Source of the DNA: a virus
Direction: 5' to 3' (one strand)
DNA: 42,816 nucleotides
IMG/VR virus record: IMGVR_UViG_3300011253_000687
Coordinates: 1-42,816 of that record
Shown piece after piece: positions 2,513-42,031 of the stretch. A program made the translations under genes and the position numbers. Under the pieces are notes generated by a model, which searched no databases, was not told where the DNA came from, and saw nothing but the letters and a program-made list of their open reading frames with translations. Numbering within the stretch: the first letter of the stretch is position 1; each line of letters begins with the position of its first letter.

Positions 2513-2514
2513 CC

Positions 2515-2772: not shown

Positions 2773-2774
2773 CG

Positions 2775-8265: not shown

Positions 8266-8769
8266 GTGACGGTCTACCCAAACACTGCCGAGTTAATTCT
8301 ACGCCTAGGCGAGTTGAGCGATCTGCGTCGACAAGGCGTAGGCAGTTTGATGGTTGACCATTTCTGCGAAGTAGCTCGGGAGTCTGGTTGCCACAGCTTG
8401 AATCCTGATTGGGAACGTCTGCAGGTTCTTGAAGACGCCGAGCGACTTATTATTTGGGTGGCAGAGTACGTGTCACCTGATAGCGATAATAGCGAAGTGG
8501 TTGGCTACTGCTGCAGCGTTTTAGCAGAGCACATGCACAACAAGGATCAGTTGCAGCTAGTCAACAACGCAATCTTCGTCAGCCCAACTGTGCGGTCTAA
8601 GGGCGTTGGCGGGTTGTTGATGCGCGCAACAGAGGACAGCGCTGCTGAGTGGGCGGCTGATATGGTTTGGCACGCGCCGGCGCACAGCCGGTTAGATCGC
8701 ATATTGTCTAGCTCATCAGGGTACCGGCCTACTATTACAAGTTACGTTAAGAAGGAATCCAATGGTTGA
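8266..8769 (+). CDS. GNAT-family N-acetyltransferase-like protein
   Basis: The start is GTG 8266, about 7 bases after AGGA. The 167-residue protein contains NAIFVSPTVRSKGVGGLLM, the acetyl-CoA-binding motif A of GNAT enzymes (R/Q-x-x-G-x-G/A form, here RSKGVG), preceded by a beta strand (VVGYCCSVLAEH) as expected. A second similar stretch, RRQGVGSLMVDH, near the N-terminus may reflect a duplicated or degenerate fold. Acetyltransferase-like genes next to terminase and portal are known in related podoviruses, and their targets are unknown. Overlaps the next gene by 8 bases. Confidence 0.68.
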   Translation: MTVYPNTAELILRLGELSDLRRQGVGSLMVDHFCEVARESGCHSLNPDWERLQVLEDAERLIIWVAEYVSPDSDNSEVVGYCCSVLAEHMHNKDQLQLVNNAIFVSPTVRSKGVGGLLMRATEDSAAEWAADMVWHAPAHSRLDRILSSSSGYRPTITSYVKKESNG

Positions 8770-25943: not shown

Positions 25944-26786
25944 ATGGGTGGTATTCCTGGACCGTTTTCTCGAATGCGAGGTGCCCTGCCATCAAGCTTA
26001 ATGGCGCCGCCTCCAGTTCAGGGGGTGTACAACCATCTAGCCCAGCCTGCTTCAATGCTGTCCGCTCCTTCTGCACCACAACCGTTTGCAGCAGAGTATA
26101 CCCAGTCCGCGCTACTGTCCCCAATACAGCCCGCTTCTTCTGCACTACAACCGACTACACCACGGGGTATCGCAGCCCAATCGCAAGCATCGGCGGCCGC
26201 CGATAAAACGTTTGCTGGGTTGTCGCCCCAGGCAATGCAAAACATCGGCATGCACTCTGCAGCAGCTGGCGCCTTAGTTGGAGTTATTGGGGTTATTGGC
26301 CAGTCTATTGCGGGCAAAGAAAACCTGAAGGCTCAAACTAGAACTATTCAGCATGAAGCATTTTTGGCCAATCTAAATGCCCGAGCCAAAGAAAGAGAAG
26401 TGTCGGCCGCTAAAGATCAAGGCAGGCTAAACATTGCTCAAGTAAGCAGCCAAGCGGGGCAGATTAAAGCTAAGCAAGATACAAACGCTGCCGCTCGTGG
26501 CGTTGTTATTCGCGAAGGCAGCGCCGGTGAAGTAACCGCAACAACAGACATTGCCAAAGAAGTAGAAATGTTGGCCATCAATCGATCGTCCATAGAGCGG
26601 TCACTAGCTATTGGGCGTCAAGCTTTAAGTTTGCGCGGAGGCAGTTTGTTAGACCGGATTAGTGCAGGAAACTTGCGCCGAAGTGCTAGCAACATTCAGC
26701 CAGGGATATCTGGAGGAGCTCAATTCATATCGTCTATGGGTCAGTTTGCTGGCCAATACGCCAACTACCGTAAGAGCATAAACTAA
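25944..26786 (+). CDS. Internal virion protein B-like (T7 gp14 position)
   Basis: A 280-residue protein starting one base after the previous stop. Residues 1-90 are Pro/Ala/Ser-rich and disordered. A hydrophobic segment (AAAGALVGVIGVIGQSIAG, about residues 107-125) is followed by a long helix with NARAKEREVSAAKDQGRL and a conserved-looking GSAGEVTATTDIAKEVEMLA. The hydrophobic segment followed by helix is the layout of podovirus gp14-type ejection proteins, which enter the outer membrane at infection. The place between tail tube and larger ejection genes supports this. Confidence 0.78.
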   Translation: MGGIPGPFSRMRGALPSSLMAPPPVQGVYNHLAQPASMLSAPSAPQPFAAEYTQSALLSPIQPASSALQPTTPRGIAAQSQASAAADKTFAGLSPQAMQNIGMHSAAAGALVGVIGVIGQSIAGKENLKAQTRTIQHEAFLANLNARAKEREVSAAKDQGRLNIAQVSSQAGQIKAKQDTNAAARGVVIREGSAGEVTATTDIAKEVEMLAINRSSIERSLAIGRQALSLRGGSLLDRISAGNLRRSASNIQPGISGGAQFISSMGQFAGQYANYRKSIN

Positions 26787-28907
26787 ATGCGCGTTCCTAA
26801 ATTTTCGGCCGGAGGATTTGCAGGTGGCGGCAGTGGCTACACTTCTAAAGCAGTAAAGCAGGGACCAACGACAGGAGTGCAAGAAACCCTCCAAATGGGC
26901 GAAGCGTTGTCCCGATTTGGCAAAGGCGTTTCGGCTTTAAGTCAGCAGTATCAAAACGAGGTCGACGAAGCAGAAATACAGTCATCAGCTAATCTGTTTG
27001 ACGAATACTCTCGCAACGTTCTAGATCCTAAAAACGGTTTCAGAAGTAAGGTCGGTCGAGATGCCAAAGACGGATACGACCAAGAAGTCAAAGACTTAGA
27101 GGCTAAGCGGCAAGAGTTTGGCCAGCGATTAACCAACCAACGACAACGGGACATATACAACAAATACAGCCGCAACCGCGCCGATCGGACGCGTTACTTT
27201 ATTGACAACCATGCGTCTAAAGAGGTGCGCTCATTTAACATTGGTGAAAAGGAAGCAACGTTGTCTGGCAAAGTAGCAGACTACGTTGGCCTGTCGACAA
27301 TGGTTGATCGTGATAGCCAAGCAGAGCAAAGGTCGATGCTTGAAATTAAGCAGGCTGTTAACGACCTAGCAGACATGCAGGCCGTTGGTCCTGAAAAACG
27401 ACAGCAGATGCTAGACACTGCTGTTGGTGGGGCTCGTGAAATGACAGTGTCGAGCCTCATAGATCTAGGCCGATTGGGTGAAGCCGAAAAGGCGCTTGAT
27501 AGCAGTGAGTTCAATCAAATCAAAGAAGCGGGCTACCGCTCGCAACTTAAGGCTGCAATAAAGGAACAAGACCGAGCTGCAAAACTTGAGGCAAGTAATG
27601 AAAGAACTCGTCAACTAAGCAACGATCTGCAAGACATCGTTAACAGCACAGCAGACGATGATGAGACGATCGCCAACGAGATAGAGAACCTCGTAGGCAC
27701 GACAGACAAAGTGCAATACGGCACGCCTGCACAACGCGGTGTGGCAATCCGTCAACGCGTCCTAGAATACGTAGAGCGAGAGCAAAGAGCGGGACGTATG
27801 GACGCTGGCCAAGCCGCAAGCTTTCAGGCTCAGGCCGACAACCAAGTTCGTGTTATCCGCAATCGGTATCTAGAGGAAGGCAACGCAGCTTTTCAATCAG
27901 CCATGCAGCTTCTAAGAGAAGACGACGGCACTGTTTTAGAAATAGAACAGATGCCTAGTGAGCTGCAGTTACGGCTTGAAGAGTTCAGACAAGTAGACAA
28001 CGTGCAAGCGGCCATTAACGAAGTCCGGCAGCCACAGATAGACGCAGCCCAAGAAGCAATAGAAGCAATAGAAGCCGATCAAAAAAACCGACGAGAGCTC
28101 TTTGCGATGACTTTGCTAGAGCAGCTGTCCGTTGGAGGTCAGGTCAAGATAGACAAAACAGTAAGGCAGCAAGCCCAAGAATTAGGCTTAGACCTGAGCG
28201 CGTTTCCTCAAGACGTACCAACCAACTGGAAGACGATGACCCAGGATCAAATCCAAGGAAGCATTCTTGCGTTAGGAGTGACCAAGCCGACTACGTATGG
28301 TAGCTATCTGAGAAAGGGTCTGAGCCTTAAGAAAGGAGCTCTCGACAACAAACGCGCACAAGAGCAACGGGCAGTTGATGCGGTCATAGATCAAATAGCT
28401 ATTGGCGCTAATATTAATCTGAAATTCATGCGATCAACAAAAAGCCGCGACCGGTCAGATATTAATAAGCGGCTAGATCTAATGGAGACCTACAGCAATT
28501 TTAGGGCGCAGCTAGCCGACCCTCAATTCCTTGCACGTTTCAACTTAGGCGAGAACAGCACACCCAATGACTGGAAGTTAGCGGCACCATCTATACTTGA
28601 CATGATCAGCATCGAAACTGACCGTGGCGACGGAATGATCAATCCTGATGACCTGTCGGCAAACAGTAGTTACCGTCAGTTTGCAACGACAGAAGCTACA
28701 GGCAACCTGCCCTTTGTTCCTGTTGGACTGAGCGAGGCTTACAGCAAGTTCCGAATGCAGACACAGAGAATGACTTACCAGGGCGATTTGGAAGACTTGT
28801 CCAATCAGATTAGTGATGGATATGGTGCGACTGAGGATCAAAAGGCATTCGTGCAATACTTACGAGATGTAGGTTATGAGCCAATCAGGGGATCAAAAAA
28901 GAAATAA
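26787..28907 (+). CDS. Internal virion protein C-like (T7 gp15 position)
   Basis: A 706-residue, highly charged, helical protein. It starts MRVPKFSAGGFAGGGSG, then has VSALSQQYQNEVDEAEIQSS and long coiled-coil-like segments with many Gln, Glu, Lys and Arg. No enzyme motif is seen. By size and position it corresponds to gp15-type ejection proteins that build the periplasmic part of the DNA-delivery channel. It begins directly at the previous stop. Near its end, residues 595-602 (DWKLAAPS) are encoded by a 26-base sequence repeated exactly in the next gene. Confidence 0.75.
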   Translation: MRVPKFSAGGFAGGGSGYTSKAVKQGPTTGVQETLQMGEALSRFGKGVSALSQQYQNEVDEAEIQSSANLFDEYSRNVLDPKNGFRSKVGRDAKDGYDQEVKDLEAKRQEFGQRLTNQRQRDIYNKYSRNRADRTRYFIDNHASKEVRSFNIGEKEATLSGKVADYVGLSTMVDRDSQAEQRSMLEIKQAVNDLADMQAVGPEKRQQMLDTAVGGAREMTVSSLIDLGRLGEAEKALDSSEFNQIKEAGYRSQLKAAIKEQDRAAKLEASNERTRQLSNDLQDIVNSTADDDETIANEIENLVGTTDKVQYGTPAQRGVAIRQRVLEYVEREQRAGRMDAGQAASFQAQADNQVRVIRNRYLEEGNAAFQSAMQLLREDDGTVLEIEQMPSELQLRLEEFRQVDNVQAAINEVRQPQIDAAQEAIEAIEADQKNRRELFAMTLLEQLSVGGQVKIDKTVRQQAQELGLDLSAFPQDVPTNWKTMTQDQIQGSILALGVTKPTTYGSYLRKGLSLKKGALDNKRAQEQRAVDAVIDQIAIGANINLKFMRSTKSRDRSDINKRLDLMETYSNFRAQLADPQFLARFNLGENSTPNDWKLAAPSILDMISIETDRGDGMINPDDLSANSSYRQFATTEATGNLPFVPVGLSEAYSKFRMQTQRMTYQGDLEDLSNQISDGYGATEDQKAFVQYLRDVGYEPIRGSKKK
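28569..28594 (+). repeat. 26-base exact repeat, copy 1
   Basis: A 26-base stretch identical to 36750-36775, running from GACTGG to ATCTAT. It lies in the gp15-like gene and encodes DWKLAAPS in frame. Bases on either side differ between copies. A match this long is not expected by chance in a 43-kb sequence. Confidence 0.95.
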
Positions 28908-28910
28908 CAC

Positions 28911-31900
28911 ATGGTCGATTCTTTGATCCCTCCGCTCTTTCCTGACGAACAGCCGCAAGGTCCGCAAGGTCCGCAAGGTCCGCAAGGTCCGAAAAAAAAG
29001 CCTGATGCTGCAGCTGCGCAGATGCCGCCTGCGCAATTGCCAATAGGTAGTTCTGCGCTGGTTCCGTTTGAAGACGAGAGGCCAGTTATCCCGCAACGAT
29101 GGGCGCCGATCACTACGCAAGAAGAACGCGACAAAGCGTTTGTTCAGTCGTTTGCGTTTGCTTCACGTCACGATCCAGCAGTGCGCGCTGAGATCCGCAA
29201 AATTGGCAAGAAGCTAGAAGACTTTGGGGTTACTGAAATTGACATCCGCAATGACATGCCGACCTATCGGCGCATGTATCAAAGCGTGTTGGTCGACCGA
29301 GAGCGCCTGCGCAAGTTTTCGCCAATAACCTACAACATGTTAGCCGATCCTCGGTTTGCTGCAGTTGGCTGGGATCAGGTCGAAGAGCTAGGCGCTATCG
29401 AAGGGCTGATTGGCGATGTCAAAAAAGGGTGGTTGCTTAACCGGTTAGGCAAGGCAGCTTCATCGGCTGTGTATCGTGATTTGTCTCCAGAAGAATGGGA
29501 GCAGATCGCGCGTATGCAGAGTGAAATTGAAGATCTGCCAACGGCTGACATGCTGTTTATGTCGCCTGCCGGCACGCTGTTTGGTCAACTAACCGAAGGC
29601 GGTGTGTCGGCGTTAGGATACGGAGCAGCTGGGGCAGGAATCGGAGCAGGAGTCGGAGCTGTAGCTGGCGGCATTGGTGCTGTTCCGGGCGCTATAGCTG
29701 GGTTTGGCTACGGCGTCAAATCAGGATATCTGGCTAACTCGTTCATGGTCAACAGCGGCCTAGCTGCCGTCGACATGCACGACCGTGGTTACGACATGCG
29801 CCGTATTCGGGCTAGCATGATTGGCGTAGGCATTGGCAATATGGTGCTCGACTATGTTGGTGCAAAAGCAGTTGCAAAGCTGGCCAAGAATACTCGGGTA
29901 GGGGAGTTGATGCGCAAGGCTACAAGTCGCAATCCGTTGGACGCGATGACCATTGGAGACACTGGTAAGCAAATTGTCAAACACGTCACTGGGGCTGTTG
30001 TAACTGAGACGAGCACAGAAACTGGGCAAACCTGGAACGAGATGTTCTGGGAAAATTTAGCACGAGGTGACAAGGAATCTCGTTTTAGCGAAGGCGGCTG
30101 GGCAGCTGTTGGCCAAGAAACTTGGCAGACCATTTCAGAAGTAGCTCAGGGCATGACTGTGATTGGTGGCACTGCCGGTACATACCGAGCTGTGCGAATG
30201 CGACTAAGGGAAAAATCAACGGTCAAGCAAACGCAAGAGCTGCTTACAAAGATTGCAAGTGCTCCTGCAGAGTTGGCCAAAAGAGATCCAGACGAATTTC
30301 AGCGTTGGATGCAACAAGTGGTTAAAGACAGTGGCGCCGAGCTAGTCAAAATACCGCTCTACGCGTTGCGCGAAAAACTGAAGCAGGCAGGCATCTCAGA
30401 GAAAGATGCTAGAGAAATCATTTCGGAGATGGATCAAGCTGAAGAGCTTGAACAAATGCTTGGCGACACGGTCGATGTTGTCATTCCAATAGGCAAAGTA
30501 AAGACCGAACTAGCGACGCGTCCGGCTCTGTTTGAAGCGTTAAAACCGGCGATGCGTTTAGATGACGACCCGCTAAGTTTTGAAGAGTATCAGCAGCGAG
30601 AGGAGGCTGTTAAGAAAGCGCGCGGAGATGTTCGAAAAGCTGCTGGCATGACAGAGCAAGCAGAAGGCTTTGACGAAGAAGTCACGCCGGAAGAACAAGA
30701 GGCAATGGATCAGGCGATTACGCAGCACAACGACAAAGCGGATCGCGTGCGCAATGTTCGTCAAGCTGTGAGCGCTATGATTCGTGCAACTGGTTTGTCA
30801 GGTGCAGAGGCATCTATGGCGATTGAGATGCACATGAGCATGCTCCAGGCCCAGTATGCTATTGAGGTTGATCTAGGTCTTGAGTTTGACGAATACTTTG
30901 ACGCGATTGCTTATCAGGTAGTCAACACTGCATCGGGCCAGACTGCTGCTAGAGCTCTGCCGTCTATTGCTTTGAAACGTGCGGCTGCTGCAGATCCTGA
31001 CGCTGAACCAGCACCTGAGATCCCATCGGTTACCGCTGACACAAAGTTGCCTATCTTCGTCAAAAAAGAAGAGACCGCAGAAGAAGCGCAAAGTCGAATG
31101 TCTTCGGCGCTAGACGCTCGCGAGCGAGGTGTTCCTGGTCCAAAAGAGCCTCGTCGAGCCATGACAATGGGCGACATTGACACCGTCGATATAGCCGACG
31201 CGGTGCTAGCAAATTTAGACAATCAGATTGCAGCTAAAAAACCAAGCAACATAAGCCGGCCGGAATATCTTCGTCGTCGTGCTTCAGTGTTAGCGGCGCG
31301 CGATGCGGTGCGTCAGCGACGAGAAGAGCTAGGGGCACCACTTGTGACCCCTGTAAGAAGTGCCGAAAGCTTGGCAGCTTCTGCATCTGCAGAGACGCGA
31401 GCCGAAGTAGAGCAAGAAACCGATACGCCGTCAGTAGAGCAAGAGACCAGCACAGCTGAACAACCCAAAGCTACTTTAGATCCTGAAATTCAGCAGCGTC
31501 TTGACGCGATGTTGACTAACAACCTTCGCCAGTTTGACAGCGAAGGCCGGCTGCGATCGGTAGCCGCTGGCGTAACAGTCGACGACGCTCTGGCCGGTGC
31601 GTCGCCGGAACAGCGTGTGCTAGCGTTAGAGTATTTGGCAGGACGCGAAGCCGGAGCCGACCCAGAGCAGCTGACGCCAGAAGCCAAGCAAGAGGCGCAG
31701 GAAATTTCTGGCGAGCCGTTCACGCCGCCCGTCATCATGACGGTCGAATCGGACGAAGACGTTAACGTTTACGAGGAGCCAGAAGAAACAGCCGAAGCTG
31801 CGCCGGAAGAAGATGCGCCGCCAACAGAGTTGTTGGGTGACCCGCCGACTCCTGAGCAGCAGCAGACGCTGCAGAGCTTCTTGCCTGAGGAGATCCAGCC

Positions 31901-34900
31901 AAGCGAACCGGACGAGCGCACCTTAATGGCCGAAGAGCCTGTCAGCTTTGACGGGCTAAAGACGGACGAGCCAATCAAGACAGACGCTAACGGGCAATAT
32001 TACGAGCGGCAGTTCATGGGTCGCACGTATCGCGTGCCGGTGCTAGGCAAGAACAAGCGACACGAAAAGCTTAAGCTGGCAGCGCAGGCGTTGGAGAGCG
32101 GTGAGATTACCCGAGACCAATGGAATCAGATAGTCGATCTCTACTTGCCGTTGCGCCGATTTACGGCGGTGCCGCCGCTGCCTTCTGACGGTCGCGTTGT
32201 CGAGGCAATGAATCAGGCGAAGCAAGACGGCACCAATAAAAAGGATCAGATTGGGGGAGACACAGAGCTAGCAGACGGCGAGCGCACGGCTTCTCGCTTG
32301 GACATCCCTGCCTACCGAAACAAGGGCATATATGTTGTTTCAGTTCACAAGTTCAAAGGTGGCGCAAGCAGTGGACCTATTCAGGGCTACAACAAAACAA
32401 TTCGCCTGACAAACGTGGTGATGGGGCAAGGCGTCAAGAAGCACAAAGGCGCCGTCTCTGGCACCAGGGAATGGTTTAAGACTGCAAAGGGTAAGAGCAA
32501 GAACAGCTACGCAGTCCTCAACGGTAACTACGTCAAGGCAACCAACGAAGAGAACCGCGCGGCGGCCGTCGAGGTGTTTGACGACCCGGCCTACCGACAG
32601 GTCGGGATGAACCCAGAGCGACATGGCTATTGGTATGATCGCGAGAGTGGCGAGCCAATTATTGCCGCCGACGAGATTATCCAGATCGGCGAGCTTGTGC
32701 TGGCTAAGAACCCGACCTACGCGCCCAAGTCAGAGTTCCTCTACAGCGAAGAGGTAAACACCGAATCCGACGAATCGTCATACAGGATGCAGCATCGTCC
32801 ACCCGGACCAGACACCCACGGCGCCCCATTACATGACTTGACGGTAAGCTTCCCCGAGGATGTCTACAGCGAGAACGCGCAGCAGTTTTATGGTTCGGCT
32901 GGCGACGTTCTGCAGGGCAAGCTTTGGAAGCTTGTTCAGTCGTTACGCGGCAAGCCCGACGCTCCGGTGACAATATACCGGGCCGTGCCCAAGTCTGCTG
33001 CCGCCACTGAGATTAACCCCGGCGACTGGGTTTCTCTAGATCGAGCCTACGCAGAAATTCACGGCGAAGGGCCAATGAATGGCGATTACGTCATCATCGA
33101 GAAAGAAGTTAGAGCAGACGAAGTGTTCACTTCTGCCGACAGCATTGAGGAAGCAGGCTACTATCCGCAGCAGCAAACCGGAGAAGGCGACCTAGACGCT
33201 GACCAACTTGTGCTGGGGCAAGACGAAGACGAGGCGGCAGATCAAGCAGGGCTTAACCAGCTAAACGTGCAACGCACAGAACGCGCAAAAGGCACTAAAG
33301 CGACTTACGTTGCAGGCGAAAAAGATCGCATTGCAGAAGCAAAGCGCGAGGCAGTTAAAAAATCTAAGTCTGCAACAAGCGTGCTTAGTAATGACAAGAA
33401 AGGGCTAGACAACCAGCTAGCAGAGCTTGCAAAAAAGCTGCCTGAAAAAGGCACTGAGCCAGACAAGGAGCTACAGAAGCAAATCAAGGATCTGAAAAAA
33501 CAGATCAAGGCAGTTGAAGCCGCGTTAAAAAAACAAGAAGACCTTAAACAGGCTGCGCAAGATTTGCCTGAGACAGTGAGGCAGCACAAAATTGCTCACC
33601 CAAGATCAGACGGCTGGGCAATGCTTGTCTTTAAAGACTTCGATTCAAAGACAAACAATCCAACTTACGAAGCTATCCCATACACGTTTCACCGTGACAA
33701 AAACGACGAGCGTCTTGATCTAGGAACGCCAGAATATCTTAAGCAGGTAGACGTTCTTGCAGAACTCATGCGTGTTGAAGTTCTGGCAGTCTTTAACCGT
33801 GCGCAGGCCGGTGATGAAAACGCTAAAGCAATCATCAAAGAGGCGAGCTGGTATAGAGAGATGCGCGCTAGGTTGCGTCGAGAGTTTGGAGGACTTGGCG
33901 ACTTGTTTGCTGACTTGCTAGGTGCAACGTCTCCAAACACTCCTGTTCGCGAAAACTGGAAATACGCTGTTGATGTATTACGTCGTGCCACGAAGGGCGA
34001 CTTCGACAAGCTGATGCCTAAGTGGGAGGCTTGGGATAAGAACTTGCAACAGGAAGAAGCTACGTTTGCAGCGTGGATCGGTTCGCAGTTAGCAACCGGG
34101 ATGACAAAGAAATCGCTGCAAGATAGCGACGAATACAAATCGCGATTCAAGGCTGTAGCGGCGGCGCGCAAGCTGTCCAAAGCCATACTGCCGGTCAAAG
34201 AGACTGGCATGAAGTATGGGTTTAATGGGCATAACATTGTCCGAGGTTTGCTTGGTTTGTGGCGCACTGTCAAAGAAGCCAACCCAGACGTGGGCATCGG
34301 CACAACAGCCCCCAAAGCGGTGAACTTTAGTGGAAACCTAATAGGGTTCCGAGCTCGTGCAACAATTGATGTTTGGGCTGCTCGACTGCTTAACCGTCTT
34401 GCTGGATCTTTGCGCATTCCGTCCAGAGCTGAAAGCGGCGTGCCCGGTTCAATGTTGCCATCGGGAGAAACCAGAGGCGCATTTGGGTTTGGCCAAGATG
34501 TCTTTGCTAAAGCAGCAAAATTGATCAGTAGTGACAGTGCGATGAAAGCTGACCCTGTTTTGGCAGGAGTGCAAGACGACGACTTGCAGGCGATTGTCTG
34601 GTTCCTTGAAAAGGAACATTGGACTGTCAATAGCTGGACCAGTGTGGCCGGCGAAGGCGGTTCGTTTGAATACGAAGCCGATCTTACTGGCACCGCAGAC
34701 CAGCAGCGCGTTAAAGCATTGCGCAAATTAGCGGGCTCTACTGTGTCTGCTACTAATGAAGAAAAAGCAGAAGCTGAGCTAACGATTGCAGAAGCTAAAG
34801 AGGCAACTGCCAAATTGCGGGAAGAGCTAAAAAAGCTAGGAGGTGCCAAAGCTAAAGGGGCGCAAGCCAACAAGCTGCGCAATGAAATCAAAGACATCAA

Positions 34901-37900
34901 CAAGGCCGTAACTAGGGCTCGCGCCATAATCAAAAAGCCGTCGACAGAAGAGTTGCAGGAAACGCGCTTGCAGGCTCGTCGCGAGCTAGACGCAATGGTG
35001 CGCACTACTGACAGGTTTCAATTGGGTTTGTCGATGGCGCTAGAAGATTACGTGCCGACTGATGGTGATCAGCTGCACTTAGCCAACAGCGTGCGCAAGG
35101 CTGCGTTACAAGGCGACACAGATGCCAAAGTGTTAGCGTCTAAAGTTGCAAGCACAGAGGGCCGATACGGAGGCGTGGAGCGCAGCATTGACGCTGAGAT
35201 TGTCACGCGCGAAGGTTACGACTGGTCTAAGCTATGGTCAGAAGTTCTGACGCAGGGTCGAGACAATAACCAAGACAGCGTGTTTATGTCGCGCGTTCTG
35301 CGCACAGACGAAACCTACGACCCTCGGCGGCACCGCCCTGGCGTCGAGGTGTTCTTTAAGGAGATGGGGGACATCGACCAGCTACAAGGCATGCTGGCTG
35401 ACATGGCCAAGGAAGGGGTCGAGTTTTACACGGTAATTGTCGACGGACGCCGTGGCGAAGCTGAGCGCACTGGCGCCATGGGATCGGCAGTTGGCGTTCG
35501 ATTCCAGTTGGTGCCTGAGTTCAACCACCGCTACGGTCTCGACGAATTCAAATGGGACCAAATGACCGACGACGAGGTTGCTGCCGAAATTGACCGGCAA
35601 GCCTTAAAGATGGCCGAAGTCGCCGACCGAGTGTCTCAGTTAAGCGGGGTAACTTTTGCGGACCAGCTGTGGTATGCTACTGAGGTCGCTTTTGCGGGGC
35701 AATACAATGACAGACTACAACAGATCGCAGCTGGACAGCCTCAGGCGCAGCCTGGAGCACCTACAGAGCTTGGGCCGTGGAATGGACAGTCCATTCGCGA
35801 AGGGGTTGCAGGCGCAGATTTTGGAGATGGAGAGGGGACCGGAGAGGCGACAGCAGAGGACGGAACGAGCGAGCGTGTCGATGAAGGGCCGCCCGACGAC
35901 GACATCGAACTTGAGCTCTTCAGCGAAGAAATAGAGTCTGAGCCTCGCGATATTCCTGAAGATGCAATCGTAGCTCTGCATCGATTGAGCTCATACGACG
36001 CCTTGGCTGCCCTAGATCTTGGCGGCCTAGCTGTTCCTAGCATAGGCGTAACTAACGCCGACGATCCTTACACTGGGTTTGGTGAGGTCGTTCTAATTGG
36101 CACTCAAAATCTGGCCGACCCTGAAGCTGGAGTGCCGGTCTTCGGTAATGACGCGTGGACTCCGACCTTTCCTAAGGTTGTGAATGGATTTACAGGACCG
36201 GTTAACTGGACACCGACTGAAGATCTGAACGGTGAGCTAGTCAAACTGGGGATGAATCATCACCACGATCGCGGCGTGAGCCCTTCGATGCGCCAAGCGC
36301 GCAACCTAGTATATCGAAAAGATTGGGATGGATGGAAAGCTGCTGTTGCACGCACTTCCGAAGTTCGGATGAAATACTTGCTTGACCATAATCAAGCAGT
36401 GCCGTTGCGAAGTAGCCCGTTTTATGATGGCAATGTTTTGCGCGATCCACAGTTGGTGCGAGATATTCGCCATGGTGCAGTTATACGCCGTGACGAAGAA
36501 ACAGGTCGGTACATACCCCGCAGTCGACAAGAGATCTCGTCAGAAGTCTTTGCAGCTTTTGATCGCGAGATAGCGCGCTTTACAGAACTACTAAGCCCCA
36601 AAGCACAGCAAGATTTAAAGGATGCAATACAAAACGCTCCACCGCCAGTGCAAGAACCTGCTTGGTTAAGAAGGTTGGGAGCCAACCCACTTACGCCACA
36701 AATTTTGGAGCCGTTAGTAACCAAGGCTCAGACTACCTCGAATGTATCAGACTGGAAGTTAGCGGCACCATCTATGACTACCTTGGGTGTACAGGCGATG
36801 TACAAGTCAGATTTTAGAACATTGGAATCGATGTTTATGCTGACCCAAGATTACATCAAAATGGTCGGTGAAGATGGGCTTGTTTACCAAGGCGTTATTG
36901 ATCACGATTTAGAAGGCCCAGTTCGAAACATACAGAATGAGACGCCGGTTGATGGCAATGCTCTTAATAAGTTAATTGAGACTCAGAGTGACGACTTTTA
37001 TAGCTGGCTAAACAAGACGCTAGATGGTCTAGAGCCACCGCGCTCTAAGCAAGTCATCATGCCTGACGGGACTGCTAAACCATTCAATCTGGCAAACGTC
37101 GTCGAATCTATGACGATGCAGAACATCGAGAATGCTACGCAGTTTGGCGACCACTTCTCGATGGGCAGCGCAAGAGCTCAAAAGACTAAGATGCAATCGC
37201 TCCAAGATGTGCAGAGCGAGAGGTCTTTGTTGGGTGAGCTAAAAAACATCCAGGCTCATAGCGCGATGCAGCCAGATATTACCTCGTGGACGGAGCGCAT
37301 CTACGACGATTGGAAAAGCGCAATGCCTCGTCGTAGGCAGTTAAGCATGGCGCTAACAGATGAAATAAGAAGCGCAATCAACCGCGCTTTGAGCAAGCTT
37401 GTTGCTCTTAAGGAAGAGCCGACGACTGAGCAAGCAAAAGCAAAGATGCTGCCAGACCTTAAGCCTTTGTTTAGGGCGTTAGACGAAAAGCAAGTTCCTG
37501 TCTTTATAGGTGAGCTAGACGCTAATTATGGCGAGGGCTTCGATCCAAACTCTCCGCTGGCTAAAGGCATTGCTGCCGGCACCATTCCCAGTTCGTTAGG
37601 AGCTCAAGAAATCTTCAACCAAAAGAATTGGTGGCAACAGAGCATTGAATTGTCGCGCCGCCTTCGTGATGCCGCCGTGGCTTACATGGAGGCTAAGCCG
37701 CTGCGGTCTGTAAGCTTTGCCGAAATACCTGGGGCAATTGTTCCGAGAGACAGTGACGGCGTAAACGACTTGCTGGCCAGCAGACTGGAAGGGCAAGGAG
37801 TTCAAGTGTTGCGGGTTGAACCAGGAGCGACAGAAGAACTGCTATACGACTTCGCTGTAGAGATTGACAAACAACAACCAGACAATGATCGGGTGTTGTT

Positions 37901-40649
37901 TTCAGAAGAAGAAAACAACGACCCCAAGAAAAAGCGTGTCCGCCGTGGCAAGTATGTGCGGCGCCGTATTGGCACTCGCATCATGCGCACAATCGAGTTG
38001 ATGGAAGACTCTAACGAAAGCACGATCTATCACGAACTTGGGCACGTATTCTTCGACCTACGCCTAGACGCTTTGCGCCGTCAGCTAGATAACCCGAGCG
38101 GCCCGCAATCGACAGTGCTGCAAGAAACCATGCTTGCGTTTTTTGAAGCAATGGAAGTAGGCCCAGAAAACGGCACGCTTGCAGAGCGTCTTGCGGCCTG
38201 GGATGCAATGACTACTCAGGAGCAAGAGCCATACCATGAAGCTGTTGCCCGCAACTTTGAGGTTTACTTAGAAAACGGCCAAGCTCCTACCCGTCGCCAG
38301 AAGCGCATGTTCCAGCGGATTGCTGGCTGGATGCGCAAGGTATACAGCAACAACGTTCTACGGATTAATCAGATCTACCGAGAGTTGTATGGGCGCGATC
38401 TGTTCAAGATTAGTCCTAGAGTTCAAAGAGCGTTCGACAGCATGGTTGCTGCCGAAGAAGACATACAAAACGAGATCGACCGCATTAACACCCCAGACAT
38501 GCAAATGCCGTCAGAGACTCAGGCTTCTGACGATCGAGATGACGACGAAGAAAACGTCACAGTTCCTGCTGACGATCGCGACGATACTGAAGACGAGATG
38601 AGTGAAATGCGGGCAGAGGCTCGCGACGATGCTATTGATGAGCTGACGCGCGAACTGATGAGCGACGCAGAAATCCTTGAAGAGATTACTGGTCGAGCGA
38701 CTAGCGCAGTGCAATCGGAAGAGCGAAGAACTCGCAAATCGCTAAAGGATAAAGCGACAAAAGAGCTGTCAACAAAACGTGTGCATCGATTGCGTGAGTT
38801 CTTGCGCAGTGGCCGTCTGGTTGACAAGGACGGTAACGAAACAGACCAGCTAGATGACAATACCCGTCTAAATACTAAGCAACTGCGGCAGCTTATGCCG
38901 GAGATCAACTTGCGCGATCTTGGCGGCGCGTTGACATCGCCTGACGGCATGGACGTGCAGGCTGTTGCGGAGTTGTTTAACTACGAAAGCGCAACGGAGA
39001 TGGTTGAAGACTTGCGCAATAGCTTGACGTTGAAAGAGGAGATCGACGCTCAAGTTCAACAACAGATGTTGGATAAATATGGCAGCCTAGCAACTCCCGA
39101 AGCTGTGCGCCAATCGGTACAGAAAGCGATCTACAATGAAGCTAAGCAAGCCACCGTGCTTAAAGAGTTGGAGTCAGTAGCCGGCGTAGCTTTACCTCGG
39201 GACGTGACGTTGCAGGCCGTGCGGGATGTTGCTAGGCAGAAGTTATCAAAGACAAAGCTGCGAGACATGCAGCCAACGCAATTCCAAAACGATGCAATGC
39301 GGGCACGCCGTGAAGCGTTCCGGCAAATGCGTTTAGGCAACAGGAATAAAGCTGCGCAGGCGTTCAGAGCTGAGCTGCTATACAACGCAATGGTTCGCGA
39401 GGCTGCATTGCAACGTCGCAACGCAGAACAGCGCATTCGACGTATCGAGGACAACTTTGCGCGTGGCCGCGACGCACAGTTGGCTAAGACCCGAGATATG
39501 CGGTTCATCTATTTTGGCCGTGCGATGCTTAACGCGATCGGCCTTGGCACACAGCCAGAGGTAAGCCATCAGCAAATTGGTCAAGTAGCAGAATACGACC
39601 CTGAGTTTTACGCGGCTAACGCAGGTTTGATTACGGCGCTTGATTCGTTTGCGATCGACAATGTCCTTGACCTAACAGGCGAAAAGTTAACCGAAGCATT
39701 GGACCTAGTTGAAACGGCGTGGGACAGAGCCCGCACAAGTCGAACAATTACCATTGCCGGCAAGCGGATGGATCGCGAAGAGGTAGCCGCACGTTTGGTT
39801 GGCAATCTTAAAAATCTTGGCAAGGTCGACAGCAGCTTGTTTGAGGGCCAGATTGATGAAAAGACCCTAAAGATGTGGCGCTTTTCGCAAATGTGGGCGC
39901 AGATGAAACGCGGCGAGCAAGCAATGATGGTCCTAGATGGGGGCAAAGAAGGTGGTTTGTTTGCTCAAGCATTCTATGAGCCATTGCGCGAGGCTCTGGA
40001 CAAAAGCGACGTAGTCCTAGTCAAGTATTACGAAGACTTGCAAAATTTGATGGAGGAGGTCACGTCGCTCGAACAATCAGAGACGACCCCCAAAGAAATC
40101 GTAGCGCCAGAATTAGGCGGATACGTATTTGGCAAGACCCGAGAAGGTGGCAACGGCGCAGTTCATGAGATCGTTACGATGATTGCCAACCTTGGCAATC
40201 AAAGCAACGCCAACCGAATGATGGCCGGCTACAAGTGGTCTGAGCCTGATAGCAACGGCAATTACAGCATTGAGCCGGTCGTTAACTTTGTTAATAGGCT
40301 GCTGCGAGACAAGATCATTGGTCGTCAGGTGATCGATCTAGCACAAGGAGTCATGGACACGTTTGAGTCTATGAAGCCGGAATTCCAACGGTCATTGTTT
40401 GAGGTTGAAGGTCGCTACGTCAAAGAAGTTGAAGCGCGTCCGTTCACTCTAAACATTGACGGCAAAAACGTTCGGTTCGCTGGCGGCTATGTGCCGATGC
40501 GTTACGACCCGTTGCAAAGCAGAACTAGCAAAAAGCAAGAAGACGAAAAGAGGGCAAAGGCCCAGATGTTAAACTTGTCGAGCTCAGCTACAAAAGAACG
40601 CGTGGCGGGCACGGTCGCAGAGAAAGTAAGCCTGCGCCTCACACGTTAA
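28911..40649 (+). CDS. Giant polyvalent-type internal virion protein (3912 aa)
   Basis: An uninterrupted 11.7-kb frame. Visible order, by residue: 1-31 Pro-rich with four PQG repeats; 232-325 Gly/Ala-rich hydrophobic membrane region; about 1139-1281 a polyvalent-associated domain (GYWYDRESGEPIIAADEIIQ, ending FLYSEE); about 1290-1420 an ADP-ribosyltransferase-like domain (Arg1357, Ser1375, Glu1413); a coiled coil near 1500; about 1560-1900 a DNA-glycosylase-like domain (ATSPNTPVRENW at 1672, TIDVWAARLLNRLAG with Asp1820); about 2336 onward another polyvalent-associated domain (ALHRLSSYDALAALDLGGLA); a zinc peptidase with HELGH (3041-3045). The last 750 residues are helical. Its place after the gp14/gp15-like genes suggests ejection with the DNA. 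No transglycosylase motif of T7 gp16 type was recognised. Confidence 0.82.
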   Translation: MVDSLIPPLFPDEQPQGPQGPQGPQGPKKKPDAAAAQMPPAQLPIGSSALVPFEDERPVIPQRWAPITTQEERDKAFVQSFAFASRHDPAVRAEIRKIGKKLEDFGVTEIDIRNDMPTYRRMYQSVLVDRERLRKFSPITYNMLADPRFAAVGWDQVEELGAIEGLIGDVKKGWLLNRLGKAASSAVYRDLSPEEWEQIARMQSEIEDLPTADMLFMSPAGTLFGQLTEGGVSALGYGAAGAGIGAGVGAVAGGIGAVPGAIAGFGYGVKSGYLANSFMVNSGLAAVDMHDRGYDMRRIRASMIGVGIGNMVLDYVGAKAVAKLAKNTRVGELMRKATSRNPLDAMTIGDTGKQIVKHVTGAVVTETSTETGQTWNEMFWENLARGDKESRFSEGGWAAVGQETWQTISEVAQGMTVIGGTAGTYRAVRMRLREKSTVKQTQELLTKIASAPAELAKRDPDEFQRWMQQVVKDSGAELVKIPLYALREKLKQAGISEKDAREIISEMDQAEELEQMLGDTVDVVIPIGKVKTELATRPALFEALKPAMRLDDDPLSFEEYQQREEAVKKARGDVRKAAGMTEQAEGFDEEVTPEEQEAMDQAITQHNDKADRVRNVRQAVSAMIRATGLSGAEASMAIEMHMSMLQAQYAIEVDLGLEFDEYFDAIAYQVVNTASGQTAARALPSIALKRAAAADPDAEPAPEIPSVTADTKLPIFVKKEETAEEAQSRMSSALDARERGVPGPKEPRRAMTMGDIDTVDIADAVLANLDNQIAAKKPSNISRPEYLRRRASVLAARDAVRQRREELGAPLVTPVRSAESLAASASAETRAEVEQETDTPSVEQETSTAEQPKATLDPEIQQRLDAMLTNNLRQFDSEGRLRSVAAGVTVDDALAGASPEQRVLALEYLAGREAGADPEQLTPEAKQEAQEISGEPFTPPVIMTVESDEDVNVYEEPEETAEAAPEEDAPPTELLGDPPTPEQQQTLQSFLPEEIQPSEPDERTLMAEEPVSFDGLKTDEPIKTDANGQYYERQFMGRTYRVPVLGKNKRHEKLKLAAQALESGEITRDQWNQIVDLYLPLRRFTAVPPLPSDGRVVEAMNQAKQDGTNKKDQIGGDTELADGERTASRLDIPAYRNKGIYVVSVHKFKGGASSGPIQGYNKTIRLTNVVMGQGVKKHKGAVSGTREWFKTAKGKSKNSYAVLNGNYVKATNEENRAAAVEVFDDPAYRQVGMNPERHGYWYDRESGEPIIAADEIIQIGELVLAKNPTYAPKSEFLYSEEVNTESDESSYRMQHRPPGPDTHGAPLHDLTVSFPEDVYSENAQQFYGSAGDVLQGKLWKLVQSLRGKPDAPVTIYRAVPKSAAATEINPGDWVSLDRAYAEIHGEGPMNGDYVIIEKEVRADEVFTSADSIEEAGYYPQQQTGEGDLDADQLVLGQDEDEAADQAGLNQLNVQRTERAKGTKATYVAGEKDRIAEAKREAVKKSKSATSVLSNDKKGLDNQLAELAKKLPEKGTEPDKELQKQIKDLKKQIKAVEAALKKQEDLKQAAQDLPETVRQHKIAHPRSDGWAMLVFKDFDSKTNNPTYEAIPYTFHRDKNDERLDLGTPEYLKQVDVLAELMRVEVLAVFNRAQAGDENAKAIIKEASWYREMRARLRREFGGLGDLFADLLGATSPNTPVRENWKYAVDVLRRATKGDFDKLMPKWEAWDKNLQQEEATFAAWIGSQLATGMTKKSLQDSDEYKSRFKAVAAARKLSKAILPVKETGMKYGFNGHNIVRGLLGLWRTVKEANPDVGIGTTAPKAVNFSGNLIGFRARATIDVWAARLLNRLAGSLRIPSRAESGVPGSMLPSGETRGAFGFGQDVFAKAAKLISSDSAMKADPVLAGVQDDDLQAIVWFLEKEHWTVNSWTSVAGEGGSFEYEADLTGTADQQRVKALRKLAGSTVSATNEEKAEAELTIAEAKEATAKLREELKKLGGAKAKGAQANKLRNEIKDINKAVTRARAIIKKPSTEELQETRLQARRELDAMVRTTDRFQLGLSMALEDYVPTDGDQLHLANSVRKAALQGDTDAKVLASKVASTEGRYGGVERSIDAEIVTREGYDWSKLWSEVLTQGRDNNQDSVFMSRVLRTDETYDPRRHRPGVEVFFKEMGDIDQLQGMLADMAKEGVEFYTVIVDGRRGEAERTGAMGSAVGVRFQLVPEFNHRYGLDEFKWDQMTDDEVAAEIDRQALKMAEVADRVSQLSGVTFADQLWYATEVAFAGQYNDRLQQIAAGQPQAQPGAPTELGPWNGQSIREGVAGADFGDGEGTGEATAEDGTSERVDEGPPDDDIELELFSEEIESEPRDIPEDAIVALHRLSSYDALAALDLGGLAVPSIGVTNADDPYTGFGEVVLIGTQNLADPEAGVPVFGNDAWTPTFPKVVNGFTGPVNWTPTEDLNGELVKLGMNHHHDRGVSPSMRQARNLVYRKDWDGWKAAVARTSEVRMKYLLDHNQAVPLRSSPFYDGNVLRDPQLVRDIRHGAVIRRDEETGRYIPRSRQEISSEVFAAFDREIARFTELLSPKAQQDLKDAIQNAPPPVQEPAWLRRLGANPLTPQILEPLVTKAQTTSNVSDWKLAAPSMTTLGVQAMYKSDFRTLESMFMLTQDYIKMVGEDGLVYQGVIDHDLEGPVRNIQNETPVDGNALNKLIETQSDDFYSWLNKTLDGLEPPRSKQVIMPDGTAKPFNLANVVESMTMQNIENATQFGDHFSMGSARAQKTKMQSLQDVQSERSLLGELKNIQAHSAMQPDITSWTERIYDDWKSAMPRRRQLSMALTDEIRSAINRALSKLVALKEEPTTEQAKAKMLPDLKPLFRALDEKQVPVFIGELDANYGEGFDPNSPLAKGIAAGTIPSSLGAQEIFNQKNWWQQSIELSRRLRDAAVAYMEAKPLRSVSFAEIPGAIVPRDSDGVNDLLASRLEGQGVQVLRVEPGATEELLYDFAVEIDKQQPDNDRVLFSEEENNDPKKKRVRRGKYVRRRIGTRIMRTIELMEDSNESTIYHELGHVFFDLRLDALRRQLDNPSGPQSTVLQETMLAFFEAMEVGPENGTLAERLAAWDAMTTQEQEPYHEAVARNFEVYLENGQAPTRRQKRMFQRIAGWMRKVYSNNVLRINQIYRELYGRDLFKISPRVQRAFDSMVAAEEDIQNEIDRINTPDMQMPSETQASDDRDDDEENVTVPADDRDDTEDEMSEMRAEARDDAIDELTRELMSDAEILEEITGRATSAVQSEERRTRKSLKDKATKELSTKRVHRLREFLRSGRLVDKDGNETDQLDDNTRLNTKQLRQLMPEINLRDLGGALTSPDGMDVQAVAELFNYESATEMVEDLRNSLTLKEEIDAQVQQQMLDKYGSLATPEAVRQSVQKAIYNEAKQATVLKELESVAGVALPRDVTLQAVRDVARQKLSKTKLRDMQPTQFQNDAMRARREAFRQMRLGNRNKAAQAFRAELLYNAMVREAALQRRNAEQRIRRIEDNFARGRDAQLAKTRDMRFIYFGRAMLNAIGLGTQPEVSHQQIGQVAEYDPEFYAANAGLITALDSFAIDNVLDLTGEKLTEALDLVETAWDRARTSRTITIAGKRMDREEVAARLVGNLKNLGKVDSSLFEGQIDEKTLKMWRFSQMWAQMKRGEQAMMVLDGGKEGGLFAQAFYEPLREALDKSDVVLVKYYEDLQNLMEEVTSLEQSETTPKEIVAPELGGYVFGKTREGGNGAVHEIVTMIANLGNQSNANRMMAGYKWSEPDSNGNYSIEPVVNFVNRLLRDKIIGRQVIDLAQGVMDTFESMKPEFQRSLFEVEGRYVKEVEARPFTLNIDGKNVRFAGGYVPMRYDPLQSRTSKKQEDEKRAKAQMLNLSSSATKERVAGTVAEKVSLRLTR
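28953..28988 (+). repeat. Four tandem 9-base repeats (collagen-like PQG)
   Basis: CCGCAAGGT four times without mismatch, encoding Pro-Gln-Gly four times at residues 15-26 of the giant protein. The repeat is followed by CCG and eight A. The perfect DNA identity suggests recent expansion by slippage. Confidence 0.95.
28994..29040 (+). promoter_or_regulatory. Candidate -1 frameshift site (A AAA AAG plus hairpin)
   Basis: In the giant gene, codons AAA AAA AAG form the heptamer A AAA AAG at 28994-29000 in the phase used by dnaX slippery sites. After 9 bases a hairpin is possible: 29010-29021 with 29029-29040, containing a perfect 7-base stem (TGCGCAG/CTGCGCA), one mismatch and one G-U. A -1 shift would reach TGA at 29003 and give a 31-residue product. 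The elements are visible; function is inferred. Confidence 0.35.
36750..36775 (+). repeat. 26-base exact repeat, copy 2
   Basis: Identical to 28569-28594. Here it lies in the giant gene and again encodes DWKLAAPS (from residue 2614) in the same phase. Surrounding protein sequences in the two genes are otherwise not obviously similar. Confidence 0.95.
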
Positions 40650-42031
40650 TGGGAACGTTCCAAGAACACGTTCGCTACATTCACGTCGTGCCGGCGGTCA
40701 AAAAGGTCCGCGACTTGTTAGACGCGACAGACGTTTCTGATCAGTTTGACGAGACAAACAGACTGTCGCTTGGCCAAGCACTAAGACGGATGGACCCCGG
40801 TATATACGGTGGAAGTCCCAACAGCGTGCTCGACCTTTTAATGTATCGAGCTTCTAGCGGTAGCTTGCACCCCAACACAGCAATGCCGGGACCGTTTAGC
40901 AGAGCCATTGGCGCTTTGCGCAAACGTATGGGCAGCATCATTTTTACGTTCCACATTAGGAACGCAGCAGAAAACAACTTCGCGTTGATTGGTGCCCTGA
41001 CTACCCGCTTTGGAGTTAAGGCGCGGTATGTTGCCGCAGCGTGGAAAGCGCGCTACGCCGACTTGGAATACATCATGTCTAATAGTAATATGATGCATGG
41101 TCGGTTGCAAAAAGGTGCGCAGCAGATTGTGGCTGAAGACTTCACGCCTGCAATGCTGCGCGAAAAAATGAGCAACCGTGTAGGTTACTGGGCACCACGT
41201 TTTACGCAGCAAATCCTAGAAGGGATGCTGTGGAAAGCGGCGCACGATCAATGGCTAGCTGAAAGCCGGCCAGACGGCATTAGCGATAAAGAGGCTATTC
41301 GTCAGGCATCAACCTTTGCCGATAGAAAGGTGCGCTTGAATTTAGGTAGCGGTGACATTTTGGACGCTCCTGGTTACGAGGGCGCCTACGGTGAGCTAGG
41401 CCGCATGCTCACGCAATTTACTGGTTGGTTCGCCTACAAAAACAACATGGCCCAAGTTTCCTGGGCTCAGTTCCAGCAAGAAGCCGGCCTAGCTGGAGCT
41501 GGTCGATTTGCTTGGAACATGTTTAGCTTGTTCTACCTAGAGTTCATGTTTGGTGCAGCGCTGGCAGAGTGGCTGCGAGGCGAAGCTGAGGACGACGATG
41601 AAGAGTCGTGGGATGCTTTCCTGTTAGAATCAATGGTGCTGCAGCCTGCTCGAATGGCTATGGCTGGCGCCATTCCAATTGCTGGCGAGATGGTGGGCGG
41701 TGGATTTGAAAAGCTGCTAGGCTTGGCCATGCGTCAGATTGACGAAGATACAACCTTCGACGGAGGTCGAGGCGTAGAGTCTCCGCGCACTGGCGCGTTT
41801 GATTGGCTAGCGCGCAATGCCAACACAGCGCTTAAATTACTAGAAGGCGAGTTTAAGGGTGCCGAACTGCGAGCAGCAGTAGAGCTCACAGCTACGCTTC
41901 TTGGCCGAGACGCGGCTATGCTGCCGGCGTTTGCTGGCCGCCAAATTCAATATGGCACAGATCTGCTGACCGGAACGGCAGATCCTCAAGATGCCGAGGA
42001 CGTATTCCGGGGTTTGATTCAAGGCAAATAA
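40649..42031 (+). CDS. C-terminal ejection-protein segment as a separate gene (460 aa)
   Basis: ATG 40649 overlaps the stop of the giant gene (TAATG), so it is translated by coupling. The product opens MGTFQEHVRYIHVVPAVKKV, then has IIFTFHIRNAAENNFALIGA and TFADRKVRLNLGSGDILDAP. A likely membrane segment follows (WNMFSLFYLEFMFGAALAEW), then VLQPARMAMAGAIPIAGEMV. In related podoviruses I recall segments of this kind forming the C-terminal end of the giant protein itself; here they are in another frame. It probably acts with the giant protein in the ejected complex. Confidence 0.7.
   Translation: MGTFQEHVRYIHVVPAVKKVRDLLDATDVSDQFDETNRLSLGQALRRMDPGIYGGSPNSVLDLLMYRASSGSLHPNTAMPGPFSRAIGALRKRMGSIIFTFHIRNAAENNFALIGALTTRFGVKARYVAAAWKARYADLEYIMSNSNMMHGRLQKGAQQIVAEDFTPAMLREKMSNRVGYWAPRFTQQILEGMLWKAAHDQWLAESRPDGISDKEAIRQASTFADRKVRLNLGSGDILDAPGYEGAYGELGRMLTQFTGWFAYKNNMAQVSWAQFQQEAGLAGAGRFAWNMFSLFYLEFMFGAALAEWLRGEAEDDDEESWDAFLLESMVLQPARMAMAGAIPIAGEMVGGGFEKLLGLAMRQIDEDTTFDGGRGVESPRTGAFDWLARNANTALKLLEGEFKGAELRAAVELTATLLGRDAAMLPAFAGRQIQYGTDLLTGTADPQDAEDVFRGLIQGK

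What the first reader, a model, noticed from the sequence alone, without database searches (positions are those of the whole stretch)
28911..40649. A 3912-residue virion polyprotein that looks like a delivered multi-enzyme toolkit
Over a quarter of the genome is one open frame. By eye it carries polyvalent-associated domains together with ADP-ribosyltransferase-like, DNA-glycosylase-like and zinc-peptidase modules, plus a membrane-active N-terminal region. Polyvalent proteins (described by Aravind and co-workers for phages and conjugative elements) are thought to be injected with DNA to block host defences. This arrangement, placed right after gp14/gp15-like ejection genes, is the strongest candidate for an undescribed system here.
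Basis: partly seen in the sequence, partly recalled or inferred. Interest (0 to 1): 0.85.

Follow-up and report, generated by a model that had tools for sequence, protein, structure and literature searches.

The report
Giant phage ejection protein, swappable enzymes
A quarter of this uncultivated phage's genome encodes one giant protein, probably injected into the bacterium with the DNA, in which a fixed delivery frame carries exchangeable enzyme-like modules; the general kind was described in 2017, but one two-part module is common in environmental phages and absent from every named phage genome searched.

Summary
The 3,912-residue frame is real. It is the giant ejection-region protein of a BPP-1/epsilon15-like podovirus: residues 3030-3898 and the next ORF (40649-42031) match Bordetella phage BPP-1 Bbp10 and relatives, in the same order after Bbp12- and Bbp11-like genes. 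In relatives the two ORFs are one protein. The kind is known: these are 'polyvalent proteins' (Iyer 2017), so it is not an undescribed system. The zinc peptidase motif is supported (41/42). The glycosylase reading is suggestive only. The membrane region is weak. New here: (1) a conserved N-terminal region and C-terminal core flank a cargo slot whose content changes independently of the core's phylogeny; (2) a two-domain cargo (1545-2240) recurs in about 400 candidate stretches of uncultivated viruses but in none of 50,697 named phage genomes; (3) its second domain has a PII-like fold with the two residues shared by SAM and SAM-AMP lyases, hence possibly an injected SAM/SAM-AMP lyase. Virion location and all enzyme activities are inferred.

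The parts
25944..26786 (+). Bbp12-like internal virion protein gene (V)
   Evidence: iterated HMM from this ORF hits BPP-1 bbp12 and the same position upstream of the giant gene in relatives; PHROG search by itself not significant
26787..28907 (+). Bbp11-like protein with transglycosylase/endolysin-like N-terminus (U)
   Evidence: phrog_10475 endolysin E 2e-10 over residues 1-234; HMM hits BPP-1 bbp11 and the ORF directly before the giant gene in relatives
28911..40649 (+). giant polyvalent-type protein, 3,912 aa
29301..30920 (+). residues 131-670: conserved N-terminal region A of the scaffold
   Evidence: tblastn/blastp to ctQRb9, ctEw122, zth2-2, L012; iterated HMM 'A' in 48 ORFs; relatives carry Pfam LPD22 at the N-terminus, not detected by Pfam in the window protein
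29610..29717 (+). residues 234-269: Gly-rich (34% Gly over 220-275), mildly hydrophobic stretch, possible membrane segment
   Evidence: Kyte-Doolittle peak 1.62; DUF6861 below cut-off at 236-274
32049..32777 (+). residues 1047-1289: module B, unknown function, floats between proteins
   Evidence: 33% to ctYwJ313, 32% to Roseobacter phage CRP-9; before C in L134/L141 and after D2 in L024/L030
32748..33188 (+). residues 1280-1426: module C, ADP-ribosyltransferase-like (R1357, S1375, E1414)
   Evidence: 306 confirmed hits in viral contigs; AF2 pLDDT 88.5; PDB matches almost only ART superfamily; R 46/46, S/T 45/46, E 46/46
33678..34760 (+). residues 1590-1950: module D1, DUF7178-related, helical; invariant K1802 and D1820, possible HhH-GPD glycosylase-like
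   Evidence: DUF7178 hit by 49 of 53 relatives, best 1.2e-6; K and D 35/35
34980..35630 (+). residues 2024-2240: module D2, ferredoxin/PII-like fold; E2090 at the end of the T-loop, Q2121 in the B-loop
   Evidence: AF2 of D1-D2 pLDDT 92.4, pTM 0.89; Foldseek lists phage SAM lyase 6znb (prob 1.00, TMt 0.53) among PII-like and HPPK folds; E 46/48, Q 47/48
35964..36185 (+). residues 2352-2425: PBECR5 (predicted RNase-fold domain), N-terminal part of the model only
   Evidence: Pfam PF18814 62.1 bits, cut-off 25, profile 15-90 of 239
36210..37979 (+). residues 2434-3023: no relative found
   Evidence: scan of viral contigs found none; an iterated search with residues 2600-3030 found only the window itself
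37998..38690 (+). residues 3030-3260: zincin-like metallopeptidase domain Z, HELGH at 38031-38045 (3041-3045), downstream E3110 and E3117
   Evidence: HExxH 41/42, E3110 and E3117 98%
38691..40646 (+). residues 3261-3912: C-terminal core F shared with BPP-1 Bbp10 (phrog_9880)
   Evidence: phrog_9880 E 8e-109; 25-29% to Bbp10, ctQRb9, DC33, zth2-2
40649..42031 (+). 460-aa ORF, C-terminal continuation W of the giant protein, split off by a TAATG overlap
   Evidence: phrog_9880 positions 1855-2227, E 2e-17; colinear with fused relatives with no residues missing; W lies in the same ORF as F in the relatives whose sequence extends that far

Best explanation
The gene encodes the giant ejection-type polyvalent protein of a BPP-1/epsilon15-like podovirus. 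A conserved frame (N-terminal region A, a zincin domain Z, and C-terminal core F plus W, here a separate ORF) is probably packaged in the head next to the Bbp11- and Bbp12-like proteins and leaves through the tail with the DNA. The middle is a cargo slot. In this phage it holds module B, an ADP-ribosyltransferase-like domain C, the D1-D2 pair, and a PBECR5 segment. After entry the cargo would act on host or defence factors before any phage gene is expressed, possibly after the zincin cuts it free. D2 may be a SAM or SAM-AMP lyase. Shown by computation: homology of the frame, synteny, module boundaries, exchange of cargo, conserved residues, predicted folds. Inferred: packaging, ejection, processing, every activity.
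For: Core homology to BPP-1 Bbp10 and relatives and identical gene order V-U-giant in relatives. Relatives' giants score for the polyvalent Pfam families LPD22, PBECR1, PBECR5 and ART-PolyVal. Cargo differs over a shared frame: L034 and L158 are 83% identical over 1,285 core residues and share nothing detectable upstream, where one carries D1-D2 and the other C; BPP-1 has 176 residues where L065 has about 1,096, between matching flanks. On the core tree the D1-D2 label needs 10 changes against 9.7 for shuffled labels, and strongly supported branches force at least 6. The same cargo occurs in unrelated giants with transglycosylase or glucosaminidase, InPase, NUDIX and ART-PolyVal domains. C. 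Z. D2: with PMC12255297.
Against: No protein evidence that this protein, or its relatives, is in virions or enters cells. No single fold match is significant on its own (C: best Foldseek E 0.29, Z 5.1; D2: SAM lyase E 0.12, Z 4.8). Loci were collected by their D or C modules, so the frequency of cargo types is biased and the change counts describe this sample only. The window protein sits on a long branch (1.81), at most 28% identical to any core in the tree, so its own frame is divergent. The L158 ORF is cut at its 5' end, so its full cargo is unknown.
Confidence: 0.72

Rival explanations
1. The protein is only a long structural part of the trans-envelope channel (like the large ejection protein gp16 of T7); the inserted domains are inactive remnants or spacers.
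For: Position among ejection genes. In podoviruses the large ejection protein is channel-forming and varies in size and domains (PMC8954989). The PBECR5 match covers only part of the model.
Against: Catalytic-type residues are conserved in modules that lie in very different proteins: R/[S,T]/E in C (46/46, 45/46, 46/46), HExxH in Z (41/42), K/D in D1 (35/35), E/Q in D2 (46/48, 47/48). Modules are exchanged as intact units.
Confidence: 0.2
2. The modules are enzymes that act inside the infected cell late (virion assembly or lysis), not on entry.
For: Late-gene position; zincin domains in polyvalent proteins may process during assembly (Iyer 2017).
Against: The fixed link to the ejection-gene cassette and the cases of transferred polyvalent-type proteins cited in Iyer 2017 (N4 vRNAP, TraC1) favour delivery.
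Confidence: 0.08
3. A separate question of anatomy: the two-ORF arrangement is a sequencing or assembly frameshift and the phage has one protein of about 4,370 residues.
For: Colinear with fused relatives with nothing missing; none of the other loci examined is split at this point.
Against: Exact TAATG stop-start overlap, typical of translational coupling; L045 shows another split of the same gene, at a different place.
Confidence: 0.4

Closest known systems
Polyvalent proteins of phages and conjugative elements (Iyer et al. 2017, PMC5512222)
   Same: Several unrelated enzyme-like domains in one chain, zincin hub domain, PBECR, late virion-gene neighbourhood, predicted injection with DNA
   Different: That paper's text does not mention glycosylase or Bordetella; D1-D2 is not among the Pfam families of the class; module C is not their H-Y-D ART family; a fixed frame with an exchangeable slot in one phage lineage is shown here
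Bordetella phage BPP-1 Bbp10 (phrog_9880) and relatives in Limnohabitans phage DC33, Caulobacter phage Jess A, ctQRb9
   Same: Core Z-F-W, gene order after Bbp12 and Bbp11 homologues, N-terminal region A
   Different: 2,039-3,209 residues and other cargo (PBECR1; ART-PolyVal); one ORF instead of two; core only about 25-29% identical to the window
SAM lyases (T3 gp0.3, Svi3-3) and SAM-AMP lyases (AcrIIIB4)
   Same: D2: beta-alpha-beta-beta-alpha-beta PII-like fold with Glu at the C-terminal end of the T-loop and Gln in the B-loop
   Different: No detectable sequence similarity; fused inside a giant protein; Foldseek also lists PII, HPPK and designed ferredoxin-like folds at similar scores
HhH-GPD DNA glycosylases (E. 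coli Nth)
   Same: D1: invariant K and D 18 residues apart, as K120/D138 of Nth; N residues at +3 and +7 from K also in Nth; D at the start of a predicted helix
   Different: No Pfam HhH-GPD match, no conserved G-V-G hairpin, profile comparison not above controls
ADP-ribosyltransferase superfamily, R-S-E class
   Same: C: R in the first strand, S/T in the second, E in the last strand; nearly all PDB matches are ART-fold proteins
   Different: Z at most 5.1; the family is annotated in phages as 'ParB C-terminal domain' (phrog_2579)

Membership tests
Polyvalent protein class (Iyer 2017) | two or more domains of unrelated biochemistry in one chain | tested here: met
   PBECR5 above Pfam cut-off, zincin HExxH...E, ART-like C; activities predicted only
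Polyvalent protein class (Iyer 2017) | encoded among late virion genes | tested here: met
   portal, capsid, tail, Bbp12- and Bbp11-like genes upstream on the same strand
Polyvalent protein class (Iyer 2017) | packaged and injected with the DNA | not testable with these tools
   needs virion proteomics and early infection
BPP-1 Bbp10 / phrog_9880 | homologous C-terminal core and same gene order | tested here: met
   phrog_9880 E 8e-109 and 2e-17; order V-U-giant
BPP-1 Bbp10 / phrog_9880 | core in one ORF | tested here: not met
   split at 40649; a difference in gene form, not a test that defines the family
ADP-ribosyltransferase superfamily (module C) | ART fold | tested here: inconclusive
   almost all VIA rows are ART-fold proteins, but best Z 5.1 and best Foldseek E 0.29
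ADP-ribosyltransferase superfamily (module C) | R-S-E (or H-Y-E/D) catalytic set in the expected strands | tested here: met
   R1357 46/46, S/T1375 45/46, E1414 46/46
ART-PolyVal (Tox-ART-HYD2 clade) | H-Y-D active site and Pfam PF18760 | tested here: not met
   no PF18760 match in the window protein or 46 members of C; R, not H, in strand 1; profile comparison null
HhH-GPD DNA glycosylase (module D1) | PF00730 match | tested here: not met
   none in the window nor among 53 members
HhH-GPD DNA glycosylase (module D1) | catalytic K and D with Nth spacing | tested here: met
   K1802 and D1820 35/35, 18 apart
HhH-GPD DNA glycosylase (module D1) | HhH-GPD fold | tested here: inconclusive
   D1 part barely tested in the D1-D2 fold search
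SAM/SAM-AMP lyase (module D2) | PII-like trimer fold | tested here: inconclusive
   6znb prob 1.00, TMt 0.53, Z 4.6-4.8 for SAM lyases, but other ferredoxin-like folds score alike
SAM/SAM-AMP lyase (module D2) | Glu at the end of the T-loop and Gln in the B-loop, the only residues kept between the two enzymes (PMC12255297) | tested here: met
   E2090 46/48, Q2121 47/48, placed by the model's strands
SAM/SAM-AMP lyase (module D2) | sequence-profile similarity | tested here: inconclusive
   null against T3-type lyases, but T3 lyase itself does not find Svi3-3 in the PDB by sequence
Zincin metallopeptidase (module Z) | HExxH and a downstream Glu | tested here: met
   41/42 HExxH; E3110 and E3117 98%
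PBECR5 | Pfam PF18814 above cut-off | tested here: met
   62.1 bits, cut-off 25
PBECR5 | complete domain with His and Ser/Thr active site | tested here: inconclusive
   only profile 15-90 of 239 matched; His in the segment, partner not placed
   best relations are Bbp12 and Bbp11; no significant PHROG match to T7-type ejection proteins, but T7 proteins were not compared directly

The most novel reading that the evidence does not exclude
D1-D2 is a virion-delivered defence-disabling cartridge: D2 destroys SAM or SAM-AMP (blocking BREX, SAM-dependent restriction or type III CRISPR signalling) while D1 acts on modified DNA, and phages exchange it as a unit within a standard ejection frame.
Probability: 0.22. 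Interest if true: 0.85.

Novelty: new variant of a known kind. Interest (0 to 1): 0.56.

Why it matters
It turns 'polyvalent protein' from a list of domain mixtures into an anatomy: within one podovirus lineage a fixed delivery frame carries replaceable payload, so payload boundaries are visible and each module can be expressed and tested. The D1-D2 payload is common in uncultivated phages, missing from all 50,697 named phage genomes searched, and makes a specific prediction (SAM/SAM-AMP lyase). If any module acts on entry, it would be counter-defence that works before phage gene expression.

Tried and rejected
(1) hhalign of D2 against T3-type SAM lyases: null; not decisive, since T3 lyase does not find Svi3-3 by sequence either. 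(2) hhalign of D1 against Nth alone and against 15 HhH-GPD proteins: the alignment falls on the D/helix segment but scores no better than unrelated control profiles; Z scored higher. (3) hhalign of C against ART-PolyVal: null. (4) PDB profile searches with C, D1, D2: nothing credible. HhH-GPD folds do not appear among the top PDB rows for the D1-D2 model, but that part was barely tested. (5) PADLOC: no match. (6) Region 2434-3023: no relatives. (7) Programmed -1 frameshift at 40649: no slippery heptamer seen in the sequence before the stop; rejected as the leading reading, not excluded. (8) A joint alignment of B and C for structure prediction misplaced the B rows and was dropped. (9) No protein-level evidence for virion location of a homologue was found in the papers read.

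Full report
OBSERVATION. The ORF is exactly as stated: 28911-40649 (+), 3,912 residues, no stop. The longest open run in 50 shuffles was 222 codons. The window is a whole IMG/VR virus record of 42,816 bases, classed linear. Terminase, portal, protease, capsid and tail genes lie upstream on the same strand. The portal is about 49% identical to Limnohabitans phage DC33, Bordetella phage BPP-1 and relatives, so this is a BPP-1/epsilon15-like podovirus.

WHAT IT IS. The C-terminal quarter matches phrog_9880 (E 8e-109) and BPP-1 Bbp10, ctQRb9, DC33, zth2-2, Jess A. The match continues in the next ORF, 40649-42031, with nothing missing; in every other relative that extends so far the C-terminal part is in one ORF with the core. 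The window therefore has a protein of about 4,370 residues cut in two by a TAATG overlap, which is either real translational coupling or a frameshift in the assembly. The two genes before it correspond to BPP-1 bbp12 and bbp11, and the order V-U-giant recurs in relatives. Pfam finds polyvalent-class domains in the relatives: LPD22 and PBECR1 in Bbp10; LPD22 and ART-PolyVal in ctQRb9, DC33 and ctEw122; PBECR5 and GNAT in Acinetobacter phage Ab9; LPD22 and RadC in L133. In the window protein itself only PBECR5 passes its cut-off.

MODULES. Region A (131-670) and core Z-F-W form the frame. Between them lie B (1047-1289), C (1280-1426), D1 (1590-1950), D2 (2024-2240), PBECR5 (2352-2425) and an orphan stretch (2434-3023, no relatives).

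C: a family with 306 confirmed hits in viral contigs. Its model (pLDDT 88.5) matches, weakly but almost exclusively, ADP-ribosyltransferase-superfamily structures (Vis, ExoS, Tpt1, cholera and pertussis subunits, ParT, PARP16, TreTu, VIP2, RES). R1357 (46/46), S/T1375 (45/46) and E1414 (46/46) sit in the strands expected for R-S-E. It is not the H-Y-D ART family named for polyvalent proteins.

Z: HExxH in 41 of 42, with two conserved downstream glutamates.

D1-D2: 412 of 443 candidate stretches in IMG/VR confirmed (some contigs are duplicates), 7 in bacterial or archaeal MAG contigs, none among 50,697 named phage genomes by tblastn with two different queries. One D2 without D1 occurs in a Caballeronia plasmid (E 3e-18). 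The D1-D2 model is confident (pLDDT 92.4, pTM 0.89).

D1 is related to Pfam DUF7178 (49 of 53 members). Its invariant K1802 and D1820 are 18 residues apart, as K120 and D138 in endonuclease III (role of these residues from general knowledge; sequence), and D1820 directly precedes a predicted helix; but no profile comparison exceeds controls. The glycosylase reading stays a lead.

D2 has a ferredoxin/PII-like fold. Foldseek lists phage SAM lyase with probability 1.00 and TMt 0.53, beside HPPK and PII proteins. [quoted passage not shown] D2 has E2090 (46/48) just at the start of strand 3 and Q2121 (47/48) between helix 2 and strand 4, with a 'QD' as in T3 lyase. I put SAM or SAM-AMP lyase at roughly 0.35-0.4 for D2 alone.

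EXCHANGE OF CARGO. HMM mapping over the collected loci gives A-D1-D2-Z, A-C-Z, A-C-E-Z, A-C-D1-D2-Z and A-Z-D1-D2-F-W. Close pairs show sharp boundaries: L034/L158, 83% identical over 1,285 core residues, nothing in common before; L001 (BPP-1)/L065, core 54%, 176 against about 1,096 residues between matching flanks; L014/L049, 67% core, different cargo directly before it. On a tree of 36 cores the D1-D2 label needs 10 changes against 9.7 in shuffles, and strongly supported branches force at least 6. The sample was drawn by D and C, so this shows repeated gain or loss, not rates. The same D1-D2 unit also lies in unrelated giants with transglycosylase or glucosaminidase, InPase, NUDIX and ART-PolyVal.

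HOW IT LIKELY WORKS. Podoviruses eject the core proteins held in the head to build the channel for DNA entry (PMC8954989 and the abstract of PMC11784390). Iyer et al. argue for injection of polyvalent proteins and suggest the zincin releases domains (PMC5512222). The most likely mechanism here is a packaged protein whose frame serves assembly and translocation and whose middle delivers enzymes that act at once on host proteins (C), a SAM-type metabolite or DNA (D1-D2) and RNA (PBECR5). Packaging, ejection, release and activity are inferred, not shown.

KNOWN OR NEW. The class is known, and membership is met on the testable features. New are the frame-and-slot anatomy in this lineage, the D1-D2 payload with no match in the named phage genomes searched, the R-S/T-E ART-like family hidden under the name 'ParB C-terminal domain', and the lyase hypothesis. 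'New variant of a known kind' is the fair label.

Noticed in passing
window 32748-33188; phrog_2579; NelitzaMV gp126 (L020:2483-2872): A phage family annotated 'ParB C-terminal domain' or 'ParB-like' in about 150 mycobacteriophage records looks like an R-[S/T]-E ADP-ribosyltransferase-like family by predicted fold and conserved residues.
   Followed up: partly
window 40640-40660: Giant gene split by a TAATG overlap where relatives have one protein; real coupling or assembly frameshift not decided. L045 shows another split of the same gene.
   Followed up: partly
L144/L146:1098-16286: A 5,063-residue ORF carrying module C (two HMM stretches).
   Followed up: no
L217:3692-4708 (Caballeronia sp. 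NK8 plasmid pNK81): A D2-like protein on its own in a bacterial replicon, with the E and Q residues kept.
   Followed up: partly
L031: The zincin domain lies before D1-D2 instead of after it, so the peptidase itself moves.
   Followed up: no
window 741-1565 and 8266-8769: A phosphoadenosine-phosphosulfate-reductase-like gene and a GNAT acetyltransferase-like gene near the packaging genes; BPP-1 also has a GNAT gene next to its terminase gene.
   Followed up: no
PQ492659.1 (Limnohabitans phage DC33): The record's taxonomy says Inoviridae, but the genome looks like a BPP-1-like podovirus.
   Followed up: no
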